The notes under the pieces are model-generated. The model had not been told where the DNA came from. It searched no databases and saw only the letters and a program-made list of their open reading frames with translations. Below, in pieces: positions 48,228 through 54,301 of a DNA stretch of 64,000 nt (position 1 is its first letter; every line of letters starts with the position of its first letter). The stretch covers positions 558,001 through 622,000 of the forward strand of contig NZ_JAHXPQ010000002.1 in the NCBI RefSeq assembly GCF_019391655.1, written 5' to 3'. The position numbers and the translations under genes are program-made. This DNA is from Mucilaginibacter rivuli (GTDB taxonomy: Bacteria > Bacteroidota > Bacteroidia > Sphingobacteriales > Sphingobacteriaceae).

Positions 48228-50213
48228 TTAGTTTTTTACATGTAACTGTAAAACAGTGACCGAATTAGCGGCAAATGTATAACTAAAATTTTTGTTTAGG
48301 CCGTTTATTGTAGTATTAACGGGTATTATTTTTTCGGGATCGGTTATGGTATTGGTGTCTTCGGGTTTGCCCGCCAGTGTTATTGCCGTACCATTTGCAT
48401 TAATACCGCTAACGCCATCAATGTTAATTTGTACCGCTTGTGGGCTACCCATAATATTTACCACCTTTAAATAAACAATACCTTTTTTTGTGTCTTTGGT
48501 TACCACGTAACTTAACGATTGCATGGTTTGCGGTACAACAGGTTTTGGTTTTGTGGTATCGCCAGGGGCACGCCTTGGTGGCGCGGGTATATACGGCACA
48601 TCAGGTATGCCGCTCATCTCGGTAGTAAGTACAACATCCCCGATATTCTGATAGAACATTTGCTGCGCATAGTACGATGGCGAGCCATAGCTTGTCATGG
48701 CATCATAACCTATCATGTTAATGCGCCATTGCATAGCGCCGGGGTTTACGTTTACAAATAACGGCGCGTATGATGCCATCAATATCAGATCGGTATTACG
48801 CTCCATTCCTGTCATCCAGGCAGCATCGCCAAGTGCGCAGGCCATGTTAGGTGTAGGTACGGGGTTTGGTATACGCGCAGCCCATTCACCTACAAATATT
48901 TTTGGCCCGTTGCGCGGCGCATTATCATAATGGTGTATATCTTTTTCAAACTCTTGCGGTAGTTTATAAAAGTGATCATCTACCAGGTCGGGCACACGGC
49001 TTGTTACTTTTGTTGTTGCTATTAACTGTAGTTTTGGATATTTAGCTTTTATGGCATCGTGCATTTGTGCGTAGCGGCCATCATAACTGCCAGATTTATC
49101 AAAAAAATCCTCATTCCCAATTTCAACATAAGTTAAAGCAAATGGAGCGGGATGACCGTCGAGTACACGCTCTGCACCCCATTTTGTAGTAGCATCGCCG
49201 GTGATGTATTCTATTTCATCAAGCGCGTCTTGTACAAATTTTTTCATCTGTGGCCCTGCAGGGTCAACATACTCTTTGTTTAAGGTATACCCTGCAAATA
49301 CCGCCAGCACAGGTTGTATCTTGAGGTCTTCGCACCATGTCATGTATTCTAAAATACCCATACCATCTGTAGAGCGGTATTTCCAGGTACCCGGGTGCCC
49401 GGGGCGGAGCGAAAGATCGTGTATGGTTTTCTTCCAGTCATAATAGGTAGCCATGGTATTGCCCTCTACATAATTACCGCCGGGGCAACGCAAAAATGTA
49501 GGGTGCAGATCGGCAAGCTTTTGCATAATATCAATACGGTTGCCATTTTTACGATCTTTATAAGTAGGAGGGAATAGTGAAACCAAATTAAAGTAGGCCA
49601 CCCCCGGCTGCTGTGTGGCAATAACTAATTTATTGTTTGCCGATGGTGCAACATCTGCACCGGTAGTTAAGGTAACGCTATATTGTTTCCATTTATCGAT
49701 GAGTGGCTTAATGGTAGCAGTAGCCAGTACTTTACCATCATTGCTTTCCAAACTAACGGTAAAAGGCAAAGCATCGCCTTTTGCATAAAATGATGCATGG
49801 TATGTTGTTTTTGGGCGTATGGGTATTCCCCAATAGCCATCGTTTGCAAAACCAACGCGATTGCCTTTTGATGCATTGGCCGCGCTGAGTTTAAGGCATA
49901 CGGTTAACGAATCATTAATGCGCTGGTTGTTTTCCAGCGATATAGACCCTAAATCTGCTGTACCTATTAAACTCCAATGTGCCGGTGCTTTATTATCATC
50001 TTTAAATATGCGGTTTTGTATCAATTCGGCATAAATGCCGCCATCGTAAGAGTGGTTGATCTCTTCTGTCATAATACCGTACAGCGTGGGGCTTACTTTG
50101 GCCTTAGCTTTAGCAGCGTCTATTTTTAATACAATGGGCGGATTGTTTTGCGCTATTACAGCAAAATTGAATAATGAAAGCACGATAAGTGCAGGCGTGA
50201 ATTTGGTTCTCAT
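48228..50213 (-). CDS. GH51 alpha-L-arabinofuranosidase, exported
   Basis: 661 residues with a signal peptide ending near AVIAQ. The GH51 N-terminal pattern is LYGIMTEEINHSYDGGIYAE. A CBM-like insertion covers about 75-205 (FYAKGDALPFTVSLES). The barrel contains the acid/base glutamate in YVEIGNED and the nucleophile in FVGEWAAR. The C-terminal beta domain includes an unusual Pro-rich linker (PYIPAPPRRAPGDTTKPKP, about 560-580). It releases arabinose from arabinoxylan or arabinan. The window has no TonB receptor or SusD pair beside it. Confidence 0.9.
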   Translation of the reverse strand: MRTKFTPALIVLSLFNFAVIAQNNPPIVLKIDAAKAKAKVSPTLYGIMTEEINHSYDGGIYAELIQNRIFKDDNKAPAHWSLIGTADLGSISLENNQRINDSLTVCLKLSAANASKGNRVGFANDGYWGIPIRPKTTYHASFYAKGDALPFTVSLESNDGKVLATATIKPLIDKWKQYSVTLTTGADVAPSANNKLVIATQQPGVAYFNLVSLFPPTYKDRKNGNRIDIMQKLADLHPTFLRCPGGNYVEGNTMATYYDWKKTIHDLSLRPGHPGTWKYRSTDGMGILEYMTWCEDLKIQPVLAVFAGYTLNKEYVDPAGPQMKKFVQDALDEIEYITGDATTKWGAERVLDGHPAPFALTYVEIGNEDFFDKSGSYDGRYAQMHDAIKAKYPKLQLIATTKVTSRVPDLVDDHFYKLPQEFEKDIHHYDNAPRNGPKIFVGEWAARIPNPVPTPNMACALGDAAWMTGMERNTDLILMASYAPLFVNVNPGAMQWRINMIGYDAMTSYGSPSYYAQQMFYQNIGDVVLTTEMSGIPDVPYIPAPPRRAPGDTTKPKPVVPQTMQSLSYVVTKDTKKGIVYLKVVNIMGSPQAVQINIDGVSGINANGTAITLAGKPEDTNTITDPEKIIPVNTTINGLNKNFSYTFAANSVTVLQLHVKN

Positions 50214-50260: not shown

Positions 50261-51922
50261 CTAAACCAAAGGCAATTCGAAATAAAAAGATGCACCTTTA
50301 CCAAGCTCACTGTTAACACCAATAATGCCGTTATGGTCTTTAATTATTTCTGCACAAATATAAAGGCCCATGCCAAGGCCGCTGCTCATAAATTTTTTAT
50401 CTTCAACACGATAAAACCTTTCAAATATTTTGTTTTGCTGGCTTTCTGAGAGGCCTATGCCAAAATCGGTAACTACAACCTTTGCCATATTACCTGATGT
50501 TGTTGTACTGATGATGATCTGTTTGTTTTCTTTTGAGTATTTAACAGAATTGCTGACCAGGTTCATCATTACCTGCTCAAGCCGTTCCATATTACCCATT
50601 ACGAGCATTTTTGCACCTCCCTCGTTTTTAATGTCATATTTAGGATAAATATGGCGGGCGTTATTTATACAGCTTTCTACCAGTTCCGCCAGATCGATCA
50701 CCAGCATTTGGTATTGCAGCTTACCTGCGTTTATCTTACTTACATCAAGCAAATCGTTAACCAGGTATTGCAGTTTACCTAAGGCCTCGTTAGCTTTATT
50801 TACAAACATTTTAACAGGGGCGGGCAGAGGTTCTTTTTTGTAACCCGAAATGAGTTGTAAGTATCCTTTAAGGCTTGTTAATGGCGTTTTTAACTCATGG
50901 CTTGCAATGCCAATAAACTCATCCTTCTTTTCCATCTCGCGTTTTTGATCGTCAATATCGGTAGATGTGCCTATCCAAAGGGTTATCTCACCAGTCTCAT
51001 TCCGCATAGGCACTGCCCTGTTTAAATGCCAGCGGTACGTACCATCTTTTCTTTTCACCCTGCTTTCCATCATAAAGGGTTGTTTGGTTTTGAGCGCAGC
51101 GGTAAATCTTCTGTTGTTTTCTTCTATATCCTCAGGATGAGAAATAAGCCCTCTTATATTCTCGAGTGGTTCGCTCACATCAAGCCCGGTAAATTCATAC
51201 CATTGCCGGCTCCTAAAATTAACGGTACCATCAGGCAGGCTTGTCCATATCATCTGCGGAACGTTGTCGGCCAGGCTTTTAAAGTGCTCGCGGCTATCAA
51301 AAAGTTCAAGTGTACGCTCTTTAACCGATACTTCTAATTCATCATTCAGCTTTTCGGTAATGGAGCGGGCTTCTTCTAACTGCTCGTTTTTTAATTTAAG
51401 CTGGCTTTGGATTTCACGCTGACTTGTCAGGTCGGTAATGATGATGCTCAATGCCAACCCTTCATCAAGTTCGAGGATATTACAGGACAGGAGGCAGGGT
51501 ATTGGCTTGTTGGTTACGGTATCTGAAAACATGATCTCGCCTTTGCAATCCTCTTTCCATCCGTTACGCACCAGTTTTTCGTATTCTTTGCTATTACTAT
51601 CATCAACAAACAGTGCAAAACTTTCGCCTATCACTTTTTCGAGGGGTATACCTATTAATTTAGCAAAACGGGAGTTACTGTATAGGATAATACCCTCGCG
51701 GTTAATTGTAACAGCACCTTCGGCCATTTTTTCGATAAATACGCGATAGGTTTGGTCGGCGTTTTTTAAGGTGAACAACTGGTGCCCTTTTTTTCCCTTT
51801 ACAACAAGCGCGTCAACCTGGCCATTGCGTATAGCATCAATGGTATCTTTAGCCTCGGCAAGTTGGTATTGCAGTTCCCTGTTCTCGGCTAACAATTGCT
51901 CGTATGGTTTTTGTGCGTCCAT
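50261..51922 (-). CDS. PAS sensor histidine kinase linked to Kai genes
   Basis: 553 residues. An N-terminal coiled coil (about 1-45) leads to a PAS domain (about 60-170), a coiled-coil linker (about 175-215) and a second PAS (about 215-335, MIWTSLPDGTVNFRSRQWYEFTG). HisKA has the phospho-acceptor His in ASHELKTPLTSLKGY, and the ATPase domain has NLVSNSVKYS, VTDFGIGLSESQQ and GLGMGLYI. No membrane segment, so it is cytoplasmic. It follows kaiB2 by 7 bases, the last gene of the Kai operon. No response regulator is nearby. Confidence 0.93.
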   Translation of the reverse strand: MDAQKPYEQLLAENRELQYQLAEAKDTIDAIRNGQVDALVVKGKKGHQLFTLKNADQTYRVFIEKMAEGAVTINREGIILYSNSRFAKLIGIPLEKVIGESFALFVDDSNSKEYEKLVRNGWKEDCKGEIMFSDTVTNKPIPCLLSCNILELDEGLALSIIITDLTSQREIQSQLKLKNEQLEEARSITEKLNDELEVSVKERTLELFDSREHFKSLADNVPQMIWTSLPDGTVNFRSRQWYEFTGLDVSEPLENIRGLISHPEDIEENNRRFTAALKTKQPFMMESRVKRKDGTYRWHLNRAVPMRNETGEITLWIGTSTDIDDQKREMEKKDEFIGIASHELKTPLTSLKGYLQLISGYKKEPLPAPVKMFVNKANEALGKLQYLVNDLLDVSKINAGKLQYQMLVIDLAELVESCINNARHIYPKYDIKNEGGAKMLVMGNMERLEQVMMNLVSNSVKYSKENKQIIISTTTSGNMAKVVVTDFGIGLSESQQNKIFERFYRVEDKKFMSSGLGMGLYICAEIIKDHNGIIGVNSELGKGASFYFELPLV

Positions 51923-51929
51923 ATTTAAA

Positions 51930-52256
51930 CTACGCCTTTATTTCTAAACCTGTTAACACTTTATTTAAATCCGACATGTCGCCTATTAGCCTGCGCTCGG
52001 GTAAGGGCAATCTCCGCATCAGCATGGGTACGGCCAGTAACTGCTCCAGTTCCGCCATTTCCGGCTGCTGGTATATGTCAATTATCTCGAGCTCATAGCG
52101 GCCATTCAGATGATCTTCGCACATCTTTTTTGTGTTGGCAATAGCGCGTATCGAATTTGGGGATGCCCCTGTAACAAAAAGCCGAAGGGAATACATCGCT
52201 TTGTTTTTATCGATGTAATCATCATTATCACCAGGAACTATATATTGCTCGCTCAT
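51930..52256 (-). CDS. KaiB-like protein, second paralogue
   Basis: 108 residues. YSLRLFVTGASPNSIRAIAN and IIDIYQQPEMAELEQLLAVP match KaiB's thioredoxin-like fold, and RRLIGDMSDLNKVLTGLEI matches its C-terminal part. It has a 20-residue N-terminal extension (with PGDNDDYIDK) absent from the other KaiB. The fold-switch region keeps the Gly of TGL but has Glu where cyanobacterial KaiB has Asp. It lies 9 bases after kaiB1 and 7 before the kinase. Confidence 0.88.
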   Translation of the reverse strand: MSEQYIVPGDNDDYIDKNKAMYSLRLFVTGASPNSIRAIANTKKMCEDHLNGRYELEIIDIYQQPEMAELEQLLAVPMLMRRLPLPERRLIGDMSDLNKVLTGLEIKA

Positions 52257-52265
52257 TTAATTCGT

Positions 52266-52559
52266 TTATGCAGGTCTGATGTTAAGGCCTACTAATACTT
52301 TTTCTTCGTTTGATAGGTCGCCTATTATTTTACGTATAGGTTCCGGAAACTTGCGCACCAGCGTAGGGATGGCCAGTATCTGGTCGCCCTCGGCTAATTG
52401 CGGGTTTACCAACAGGTCTATCACTTCAATCCTGTACTGGCCCTGTAAATGCTCTTCACAATACTTTTTCAGGTTGTTTAAGGCATCAACAGATTTTTGT
52501 GTTTTCCCGGCAACGTATAACCGCAGCTCCCAGGTCTTTGGTTCTTTTTCTTCACCCAT
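52266..52559 (-). CDS. kaiB: Circadian clock protein KaiB
   Basis: 97 residues. [40 protein letters not shown] and [18 protein letters not shown] match cyanobacterial KaiB almost along its whole length, though it ends sooner, without the acidic tail. KaiB is a fold-switching partner that docks on the CI ring of KaiC. The ATG overlaps the kaiC stop by one base (TAATG), indicating translational coupling. Confidence 0.95.
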
Positions 52560-54301
52560 TATTTTTTCTTCCTTATTTGAGTTTCCTGTTCCTCTGCTTT
52601 GCTACGCCGGATATTAGTTATTTCCGACAGTGTTTTAGCCATAATTTCGTCTTTCAGTTGTTCCTCAATATACACCTTGTTCAATTCTTCTTCAACAGAT
52701 TCAAATTCGGTTTGCAGGCTTGCAATTTTAGCTTCCAACACTTTGCGTTTACGGCTTATTTCCCTGTCTTTGCGTGATACCGCATTGGTTTTTATTACCT
52801 TACTGGTTTGTTCCTTCAATATCTCCGCCTCGCGTGCAGAACCGGTTAATACACCATCAGGGCCTAAGTACACATCTACAAGGTCAAGCCCGTTATCGGT
52901 GATCACAAACTCACGCACCTGGTTTGAGTGCTTCATCCCTCGCGATTTCATGATATACATGCCGCGGTTGCGCTCGCCGTTATATTCAATATCGCGCACC
53001 AGCAGCCAGGCATCAACTAAAGATGATACACCTTCGTCGGTTTGCTCGGTAACGGCTGTATTTAATGTTAAGGCGGTAAACATTACCGTGATCTGCTCTT
53101 CCTGTAAAAAATCTATCAGGCGTATCAGCATTCCTTTTACTTCGCTAACTGAGCCAACAGTAACAAGGTTGGTAATAGGGTCGAGAATTACTACAGATGG
53201 TTTGAATTTTTTGATAGATTTATAAATGTTCACCAAATGCATTTCCAAACCATACATAGTGGGCCTTGCGGCATGAAACTCTAATAAGCCTTTATCAACA
53301 TAAGGTTGCAGGTCCAGGTTTATAGATGTCATGTTCCTGATGATCTGCCTTGGCGATTCCTCGAAAGCGAAGTATAAACAGCGCTCACCGCGACTGCAAG
53401 CTTCGCTGGCAAAATAGGCAGCTATACTGGTTTTACCTGTACCCGCCGTACCCGACACCAACACGCTGCTGCCACGATAAAAGCCTTTGCCACCCATCAT
53501 TTGATCGAGTGCTGTAATACCCGATGGTATGCGCTTTTCTGATACTTCTTTATCCAGAAATAAACTGGTTACCGGCAATACCGAAATGCCTTCCTGATCT
53601 ATAAGGAAAGGATATTCGTTTGTTCCATGAATGCTTCCGCGATATTTTACAACACGCAGGCGGCGGGTTGATATTTGGTTGATGATGCGATGGTCAAGCA
53701 GTATCACACAATCAGATACATACTCTTCCAGGCCCTGGCGGGTTAATTTGCCGTCACCACGCTCACCGGTAATAATGGCGGTAACACCTTTTTCTTTTAA
53801 CCAATGGAAAAGCCTGCGTAATTCGGCACGTAATATAGTTTGATTAGCTAATCCCGAAAAAAGGTTTTCTATGGTATCCAATACAACACGTTTTGCGCCA
53901 ATGCTGTCAATAGCGTATCCCAAACGGATAAACAGGCCGTCAAGATCATATTCGCCGGTTTCTTCTATTTCGCTGCGCTCGATATGCACATGGTCAAGGC
54001 GGATCTTTTTTTCGTCCTGTAGTTTTTTCAAATCAAAGCCTAACGAAGCTACGTTCATTTCCAGCTCTTCGGCTTTTTCTTCAAATGCCATAAAAACGCC
54101 GGGCTCGTTAAACTCCATAGCGCCACGGACAATAAATTCGAGCGAAATTAAGGTTTTACCGCAGCCTGCATCGCCACAAATCAGGGTGGGGCGCCCCTTG
54201 GGGATGCCACCGCCGGTAATCTGATCGAGTCCGGTAATGCCTGTAGGCGTTTTAGGAAGTAAAACGTGATTGGCTAAAACTTTTTTTGATTCTTTACTCA
54301 T
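52559..54301 (-). CDS. kaiC: Circadian clock ATPase KaiC with coiled-coil tail
   Basis: 580 residues with tandem RecA-like domains CI and CII. CI: Walker A GDAGCGKT (43-50), catalytic Glu pair E74-E75. CII: Walker A GTAGTGKT, Glu pair in [11 protein letters not shown]. The autophosphorylation region reads T421-D-E-G-V-S426-S427, aligning with T426, S431 and T432 of Synechococcus elongatus KaiC at identical spacing. After [11 protein letters not shown] a Lys/Glu-rich coiled coil fills about residues 485-580; cyanobacterial KaiC ends about 60 residues earlier. No KaiA gene is seen. A TTG at 54313 could extend the frame by four residues; the ATG at 54301 is preferred. Confidence 0.95.

What the first reader, a model, noticed from the sequence alone, without database searches (positions are those of the whole stretch)
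50261..54301. KaiA-less Kai operon: kaiC, two kaiB genes and a PAS histidine kinase
Four genes on one strand with a one-base overlap and gaps of 9 and 7 bases. KaiC and KaiB are sure by motif. Cyanobacterial clocks use KaiA, KaiB and KaiC with the SasA and CikA kinases; here KaiA is absent and a PAS-only kinase sits last in the operon. That suggests a self-contained timing or energy-sensing module in a heterotroph, with the kinase either reading KaiC state or being controlled by KaiB. KaiB/KaiC genes outside cyanobacteria are known; the four-gene order, the double KaiB and the kinase link in this phylum are the points worth testing.
Basis: partly seen in the sequence, partly recalled or inferred. 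Interest (0 to 1): 0.75.

Follow-up and report, generated by a model that had tools for sequence, protein, structure and literature searches.

The report
Kai operon with dedicated signalling receptor
This bacterium carries a clock-like gene set (kaiC and two different kaiB genes, no kaiA found), and the kinase gene packed behind it belongs to a receptor family whose front end turned up only beside kaiB genes while its output end is swapped freely, which points to how such systems may signal outside cyanobacteria.

Summary
No KaiA match, no other kaiB, no second close kaiC in the genome. KaiA-less kaiC-kaiB-PAS kinase operons are known from purple bacteria, so that part is not new. Three points go further. 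(1) The four-gene order is whole in 79 of 80 named Bacteroidota loci; the other ends with its contig. (2) First and second KaiB are old, separate paralogs in fixed order (42 and 42, none misplaced in a quick tree; 35 and 35 in a careful one). (3) The kinase's conserved part is its N-terminal domain, about 78 residues: 36 of 36 places in two genome surveys lie behind kaiB, and 0 of 314 kaiB-less genomes of the first survey have it. Behind it sit different HisKA cores, HWE or hybrid kinases, or an HD-GYP domain. I read it as a Kai-dedicated receptor with interchangeable outputs. One genome keeps kaiB plus receptor without kaiC. No interaction and no timing was tested.

The parts
52559..54301 (-). 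kaiC, 580 aa: two KaiC-type ATPase domains, candidate phosphosites S426/S427, C-terminal tail (residues 500-580) aligned with the extension of R. sphaeroides KaiC
   Evidence: (8dba E 8.4e-198, residues 16-572)
52266..52559 (-). first kaiB (KaiB-alpha), 97 aa, slowly evolving; closest solved relative is R. sphaeroides KaiB
   Evidence: (8fwj_M E 1e-28)
51930..52256 (-). second kaiB (KaiB-beta), 108 aa, faster-evolving old paralog with near-invariant Q63-Q64; predicted thioredoxin-like fold
51689..51922 (-). N-terminal domain of the kinase (residues 1-78): helix 7-32, hairpin 38-51, helix 55-64 and the first PAS strand; the part found only beside kaiB
51395..51688 (-). rest of the first PAS domain (residues 79-176; model strands 69-164)
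50264..51394 (-). second PAS (about residues 210-323) and transmitter (HisKA 333-400 with invariant H342, HATPase_c 445-552): the exchangeable part

Best explanation
A KaiA-independent KaiBC module of the Rhodobacter sphaeroides type, tied by gene order to its own output receptor. Supported here by sequence: KaiC has both ATPase sites, the catalytic glutamates, the two serines that are changed to Glu in the R. sphaeroides phosphomimic, and that protein's C-terminal extension; KaiB-alpha corresponds to R. sphaeroides KaiB; KaiB-beta is an old second KaiB; the last gene is a receptor whose N-terminal domain is dedicated to Kai operons and whose output module is interchangeable. Inferred: KaiC follows the ATP/ADP ratio, phosphorylates itself and is reset with KaiB-alpha bound to its CI ring in the ADP state, as shown for R. 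sphaeroides (PMC10076222). Inferred, less sure: KaiB, most likely KaiB-beta, contacts the receptor's N-terminal domain and passes on the state of KaiC, changing phosphotransfer here and c-di-GMP breakdown where the output is HD-GYP; the PAS domains add a second input.
For: Order whole in 79 of 80 named loci. Both serines in 109 of 109 KaiCs (window and 108 loci, L033 left out, 12 contigs present twice). Phylum survey, 345 genomes: N-terminal domain in 23, one place each, all 23 behind kaiC and kaiB on the same strand; kaiB in 31; 0 of 314 kaiB-less genomes have the domain (Fisher p 1.8e-29, genomes not independent). Class survey, 395 genomes: 21 places in 19 genomes, all behind kaiB (ten opened; eleven known). 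In ten genomes searched to E 10, the four true matches are 3e-23 or better and the next match is 0.03. Plasmids: the 13 records with the domain are the 13 with KaiC at 53-59% identity, nine of them Cereibacter sphaeroides, each with the domain right behind kaiB by coordinates (5 opened); 3 records with KaiC at 34-37% lack it. Interchangeable output: identity to the window's kinase core is 25-31% in 25 of 78 loci while the N-terminal domain stays at 56-83%; the window's core ranks the operon kinase of G182 21st of 31 matching places, and the L059 core ranks ours 4th of 43; HWE in three alphaproteobacteria; HD-GYP motifs in all six domain-bearing genomes of one genus (Pfam HD_5 run on one). KaiB as partner: G758 has kaiB plus receptor and no kaiC match at 1e-20; KaiB-beta follows the receptor's N-terminal domain and PAS1 (partial r 0.41, 0.50 given KaiC) more than KaiB-alpha does (0.26, 0.28).
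Against: No interaction, activity or rhythm was measured. The profile was built from kai-linked proteins, so remote relatives elsewhere could be missed, though the E-value gap is wide (weakest survey match 4.5e-16, cut-off 1e-6). 8 of 31 kaiB-bearing genomes of the phylum survey lack the domain (one kaiB at a contig edge, one partial); three of them have a fairly close KaiC with one kaiB and no receptor (G227 61%, G403 60%, G154 50% identity), so the core can do without it. 11 of 36 places have one kaiB only, so KaiB-beta is not required. In G276 and G378 a gap of 241 bases separates kaiB and receptor. The KaiC tail is missing in L140, L151, L155, L156 and L159, and L156 has SP at the phosphosites. 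The partial correlations ignore tree structure; the KaiC tail, for example, correlates with the kinase core (0.35) but hardly with the N-terminal domain (0.08), which shows how lineage effects enter. The KaiC-less case is one genome. The helix-hairpin part of the model has only moderate confidence and pTM is 0.37.
Confidence: 0.62

Rival explanations
1. The receptor is an input device: its PAS domains sense redox, oxygen or a ligand and pass that to KaiBC, as suggested for R. sphaeroides.
For: PAS domains are typical sensors; the proposal is in print for R. sphaeroides (PMC5520375 and PMC10931921, passages). PAS1 matches are found across the operon kinases (77 of 78 match Pfam PAS).
Against: Outputs as unlike as HisKA, HWE and HD-GYP behind the same front end fit a readout better; a c-di-GMP phosphodiesterase has no evident way to set KaiC (inference). 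PAS1 varies more (47% mean identity) than the stretch before it (72%).
Confidence: 0.2
2. An energy or stress sensor rather than a timer: KaiC reports ATP/ADP, the receptor adjusts gene expression, and no daily rhythm exists. This rival shares the anatomy of the best explanation and differs in purpose.
For: R. [quoted passage not shown] Legionella and Pseudomonas Kai proteins are reported to act in stress resistance (as cited in PMC11832031, passages). The system is patchy: 32 of 151 family genomes have kaiC.
Against: Nothing here speaks against it; the anatomy does not separate it from an hourglass timer.
Confidence: 0.45
3. KaiB-beta is a redundant or decaying duplicate of KaiB-alpha.
For: It evolves faster (64% against 85% mean pairwise identity).
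Against: Fixed second place and separate side of the tree in 42 of 42; 14 invariant positions besides the start over 50 sequences; in L031, L032, L155, L156 and L160 the only kaiB at the locus falls on its side (quick tree; L031 and L032 also).
Confidence: 0.1
4. Gene-order hitchhiking: the receptor sits in the operon without any dealings with the Kai proteins.
For: Operon linkage alone is not interaction.
Against: 36 of 36 surveyed places behind kaiB, some in genomes outside the window's class (G193 and kin, G410, G479), plus 13 plasmid records of another phylum (nine from one species); no place without kaiB found; no fifth gene comes near this linkage (largest neighbour cluster 18 loci).
Confidence: 0.05

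Closest known systems
R. sphaeroides / R. palustris kaiC-kaiB-PAS/HK operon (PMC4794148 passages; PMC10076222 passages and section 10; locus L115)
   Same: No KaiA reported; KaiC with two serines and C-terminal extension; KaiB; downstream PAS kinase; in L115 it carries the same N-terminal domain
   Different: One kaiB in L115, two here; HWE kinase in L115, HisKA here; KaiC 54% identical
kaiBC gene contexts of De Luca et al. 2011 (PMC3164672, section 17 read)
   Same: Their first context: kaiC-kaiB followed by a kinase or GGDEF/EAL gene outside cyanobacteria
   Different: They define a conserved N-terminal domain (RtaNt) for kinases of the kaiB-less context; the section read describes no shared domain for the kaiBC context and no KaiB paralogs
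SasA of cyanobacteria
   Same: Histidine kinase as reader of KaiC (for SasA as described in PMC3164672 and PMC5520375)
   Different: SasA has a KaiB-like N-terminal domain; none is found on this kinase, whose front end is modelled as helix, hairpin and PAS
Bacteroidetes KaiB2/KaiC2 group of Schmelling et al. 2017 (PMC5520375, passages read)
   Same: Same phylum; KaiC2-like proteins reported there
   Different: Operon, KaiB pair and receptor do not appear in the passages read

Membership tests
KaiA-less KaiBC system of the R. sphaeroides type | Two-domain KaiC with Walker A motifs and catalytic Glu pairs | tested here: met
KaiA-less KaiBC system of the R. sphaeroides type | Two adjacent serines at the S413/S414 place | tested here: met
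   S426/S427; 109 of 109, aligned with 8dba and its EE variant 8fwi
KaiA-less KaiBC system of the R. sphaeroides type | C-terminal coiled-coil extension | tested here: met
   by sequence only: match to residue 572 of 580; not modelled; absent in some relatives
KaiA-less KaiBC system of the R. sphaeroides type | KaiB present, KaiA absent | tested here: met
   (Pfam KaiA; KaiA3-like proteins not sought)
KaiA-less KaiBC system of the R. sphaeroides type | ATP/ADP-dependent phosphorylation and KaiB binding, timing | not testable with these tools
   needs purified proteins
Cyanobacterial KaiABC oscillator | KaiA | tested here: not met
SasA | KaiB-like N-terminal domain on the kinase | tested here: not met
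   no KaiB match in Pfam; the NCBIfam SasA-type model PRK09303 matches only the kinase core and far below its cut-off (121.6 of 342 bits)
CikA | GAF domain and receiver-like end (recalled) | tested here: not met
   neither
Nt_HK (RtaNt) kinases of De Luca et al. | kaiC followed by the kinase, no kaiB elsewhere in the genome | tested here: not met
   two kaiB here
Nt_HK (RtaNt) kinases of De Luca et al. | RtaNt domain | not tested
   no RtaNt sequence was fetched for comparison

The most novel reading that the evidence does not exclude
The N-terminal domain is a general output port of Kai systems outside cyanobacteria: one Kai-dedicated receptor family, seen in Bacteroidota and Alphaproteobacteria, that plugs the same KaiBC state into kinases, hybrid kinases or c-di-GMP enzymes, with KaiB-beta, a KaiB paralog held in the thioredoxin-like fold, as the messenger to the receptor, able to work even where KaiC has been lost.
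Probability: 0.3. Interest if true: 0.85.

Novelty: new variant of a known kind. Interest (0 to 1): 0.62.

Why it matters
How KaiBC systems outside cyanobacteria signal is open: Schmelling et al. concluded that possible clocks of other bacteria must use an output pathway different from that of Synechococcus (PMC5520375, passage). A domain of about 78 residues, found here only beside kaiB and joined to unlike output enzymes, is a concrete candidate for that pathway and makes the question testable with small purified proteins. A paired, old KaiB paralog would add a second use of the KaiB fold.

Tried and rejected
Shared fifth gene: none. A single-domain response regulator stands behind nine of 79 receptors, all nine of the 424-432-aa kinase type, and a divergent PAS kinase is next to kaiC in 12 loci; not part of the unit. 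Promoter evidence: chance level. The downstream arabinofuranosidase gene, 47 bases behind the kinase on the same strand, has no match at 1e-20 among the frames of L001-L113. The first impression that L105/L107 lack the N-terminal domain came from showing only the best segment; they have it. A strict motif search for the phosphosites missed many relatives and was replaced by an alignment. KaiB trees: the careful one (88 rows) and the quick one (104 rows, L143 left out, several long branches that meet) agree on first against second KaiB but not on the KaiBs of L142, L144, L146 and L147 (no receptor), which lie on the alpha side and on the beta side. Rows left out: L033 from the residue counts; L005-L033, L049 and L087; L005-L033 and L049; KaiCs with a match of 250 bits or less. 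Alignment A1 holds 77 of the 80 named loci plus the window (kinases absent or touching a locus end left out).

Print: statements about what is described rest on ten library searches. No paper holds kaiC, kaiB and Mucilaginibacter. The two papers with KaiC, KaiB and HD-GYP were seen as a listing only (by title, S. elongatus and Myxococcus xanthus). Subscription papers are not held; the original R. sphaeroides operon paper was not read.
Full report
What is there. On the minus strand lie kaiC (54301-52559), a first kaiB (52559-52266), a second kaiB (52256-51930) and a histidine kinase with two PAS folds (51922-50261), with a one-base overlap and gaps of 9 and 7 bases. The genome (14 contigs, 99.84% complete) has no further kaiB, only one weak other KaiC-like match and no Pfam KaiA match. 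To avoid a clash with the Synechocystis names I call the two KaiB proteins alpha (first) and beta (second).

KaiC. The best solved relative is R. sphaeroides KaiC (8dba, E 8.4e-198, residues 16-572), matched into its C-terminal extension; other full-length KaiC entries match at 2.3e-107 or weaker and stop near residue 504. Both Walker A motifs and Glu pairs are kept, and S426/S427 align with the serines that read EE in 8fwi; 109 of 109 KaiCs (window and 108 loci, L033 left out) have both serines. In the wider set the pair is SS in 41 of 44 rows (some genomes twice), ST in L142 and L146, SP in L156; the tail is missing in L140, L151 (= L141), L155, L156 and L159 and nearly so in L142 and L146. 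In R. sphaeroides this type of KaiC works without KaiA, with the coiled coil as key regulator and KaiB binding the ADP state of CI (PMC10076222; passages and section 10 read).

Conservation of the operon. 80 named loci, all Bacteroidota by title, were brought in by kaiC (the best 80 of 190). 79 have all four genes in the same order and strand; the remaining one, L049, ends with its contig. Spacing is 35 bases or less in 78, 79 and 79 of 79 at the three junctions, with starts taken as the longest frames. In the family survey 32 of 151 genomes have kaiC. 27 of these 32 have the four genes (the window and L005-L030), two keep kaiC, KaiB-beta and the receptor gene (L031, L032), two are decayed (L033, L170), and one is cut by a contig end (L169).

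Two KaiB proteins. In a careful tree of 88 KaiBs all 35 second-place KaiBs, with L031 and L032, lie on one side of a supported branch (96/81) and all 35 first-place ones on the other. In a larger quick tree 42 and 42 are split with none misplaced (SH-aLRT 88), though several branches are long and the receptor-less KaiBs of L142, L144, L146 and L147 change sides between the trees. Pararhizobium, in another phylum, has the same four-gene order with two KaiBs, and its second KaiB, on a long branch, falls on the beta side. R. sphaeroides KaiB is nearer alpha (63% identity) than beta (44%) and lies on the alpha side. Mean pairwise identity is 85% for alpha and 64% for beta. Beta has near-invariant QQ at 63-64. 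The residues named for fold switching in S. elongatus KaiB (K57, G88, D90; PMC5520375 passage) read Q, G, N in alpha and Q, G, E in beta of the window, by the numbering of chain 4kso. The beta model (pLDDT 71, pTM 0.60) has the thioredoxin-like order and matches Legionella KaiB (TM 0.76) and R. sphaeroides KaiB in complex (0.69), while the KaiB crystals 1wwj and 1vgl score 0.38. AlphaFold's own preference between KaiB folds was not controlled.

The receptor. Within the operon kinases, residues 17-75 have 72% mean identity over 79 sequences, PAS1 47% and the kinase core 41%. Identity of the core to the window's is 57-68% in 35 of 78 loci, 52% in 2, 35-44% in 16 and 25-31% in 25, while the N-terminal domain stays at 56-83%. 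In G182 the window's core finds 20 other places before the operon kinase (21st of 31); in G036, of the window's own genus code, the operon kinase is first. In the reverse test the core of L059 finds three other places of the window's genome before ours (4th of 43). So catalytic halves have been exchanged behind a constant front end. All 78 kinases of the named set, window included, have HisKA and HATPase_c. Elsewhere the same front end carries HWE kinases (L115-L117), HisKA plus receiver (L114, L149) and, in the six domain-bearing genomes of one genus, an HD-GYP domain with HD.GK and HHE..DG.GYP motifs (Pfam run on one of the six). In L130 the frame ends after the PAS.

Is the front end tied to kai? 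A 78-column profile (21 sequences) was searched in 345 genomes of the phylum: 23 genomes, one place each. kaiB is in 31 of the same 345. All 23 places lie behind kaiB and kaiC on the same strand (in G276 and G378 with 241 bases between kaiB and receptor). None of the 314 kaiB-less genomes has a match (Fisher p 1.8e-29; related genomes, so not an independent-sample probability). Eight genomes have kaiB only: G227 and G403 with a KaiC 61% and 60% identical, G154 with two KaiCs (50% and 37%), G235 with one at 37%, G163 and G329 with no kaiC match at 1e-20, G361 with kaiB at a contig edge and G322 with a partial kaiB. In 395 genomes of the class there are 21 places in 19 genomes, all behind kaiB (ten opened, eleven known). 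Without the eight shared places this gives 36 distinct places: 36 of 36 behind kaiB, 35 of 36 with kaiC, 25 with two kaiB and 11 with one. kaiB was not separately sought in the domain-less genomes of the class survey. In ten genomes searched to E 10 the next match after the four true ones is 0.03. In 72,556 plasmid records the front end (residues 1-175, tblastn 1e-5) is found in 13, the same 13 that hold KaiC at 53-59% identity; nine are Cereibacter sphaeroides; three records with KaiC at 34-37% lack it. By coordinates all 13 have it right behind kaiB; five were opened. Other phyla's chromosomes could not be surveyed.

Which Kai protein does it meet? G758 (99% complete) has a beta-side kaiB and, two bases on, the receptor, but no kaiC match at 1e-20; the gene before kaiB ends in a secretion-sorting domain. 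G163 and G329 also have kaiB packed against kinases without kaiC, though without this domain. After removal of the KaiC trend, distances of KaiB-beta follow those of the receptor's N-terminal domain and PAS1 (0.41, 0.50) more than KaiB-alpha does (0.26, 0.28) or than KaiB-beta follows the core (0.25). None of 500 permutations reaches these, but permutations do not remove tree structure, and the KaiC tail shows 0.35 with the core and 0.08 with the N-terminal domain, so lineage effects are present. Against beta as the sole partner: the receptor occurs with an alpha-side KaiB alone in Cereibacter and others.

Mechanism. Best reading: KaiC as an ATP/ADP-driven hourglass or energy gauge, KaiB-alpha as its resetting partner, KaiB-beta or KaiB in general as link to the receptor, and the receptor as output. 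Rough weights, all mine: R. sphaeroides-type core 0.95; N-terminal domain is a Kai-dedicated signalling interface 0.8; output rather than input 0.75; KaiB rather than KaiC as direct partner 0.5; a timer rather than an energy sensor 0.4.

Known and new. KaiA-less kaiC-kaiB-PAS/HK operons (PMC4794148, passages), kinases or GGDEF/EAL genes behind kaiBC (PMC3164672, section 17) and kai genes in Bacteroidetes (PMC5520375, passages; PMC11573002, one passage calling them rare there) are in print. In ten library searches and the passages read I saw no account of the shared N-terminal domain, its exchangeable outputs or the paired KaiB paralogs; subscription papers are outside the library.

Noticed in passing
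L160 1570-3224 (G758): kaiB and receptor kinase as a pair in a genome with no kaiC match at 1e-20.
   Followed up: partly
L147 2917-7136 and L144 798-4834: kaiB between or before kinases in genomes without a kaiC match and without the N-terminal domain.
   Followed up: partly
L033, L170, L031, L032: Decaying operons: kaiC with an internal stop and no second kaiB or kinase within the locus; a kaiC fragment followed by kinase-core sequence without kaiB; kaiB-alpha missing in two related genomes, with a shortened kinase frame in one.
   Followed up: partly
L035 at -3354 to -355 relative to kaiC, and further loci: Divergent PAS histidine kinase next to kaiC in 12 loci, mainly Mucilaginibacter; about 1000 aa in the ten seen (Pfam on L035 only).
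   Followed up: no
L059, L060, L062, L064, L073, L077, L091, L094, L110, gene behind the receptor: Single-domain response regulator directly behind receptors of the 424-432-aa type: a candidate phosphotransfer partner.
   Followed up: no
L165 4977-5270, L166 4947-5282: KaiB-family genes on two Hymenobacter plasmids with no kaiC annotated nearby; in L166 a response regulator and a PAS protein flank it.
   Followed up: no
window 48228-50213: Arabinofuranosidase (GH51-type by domain) gene begins 47 bases behind the kinase on the same strand; no match in the other loci.
   Followed up: partly
L155, L156 (G514) and L158, L159 (G729): Two kai-receptor operons in one genome.
   Followed up: no
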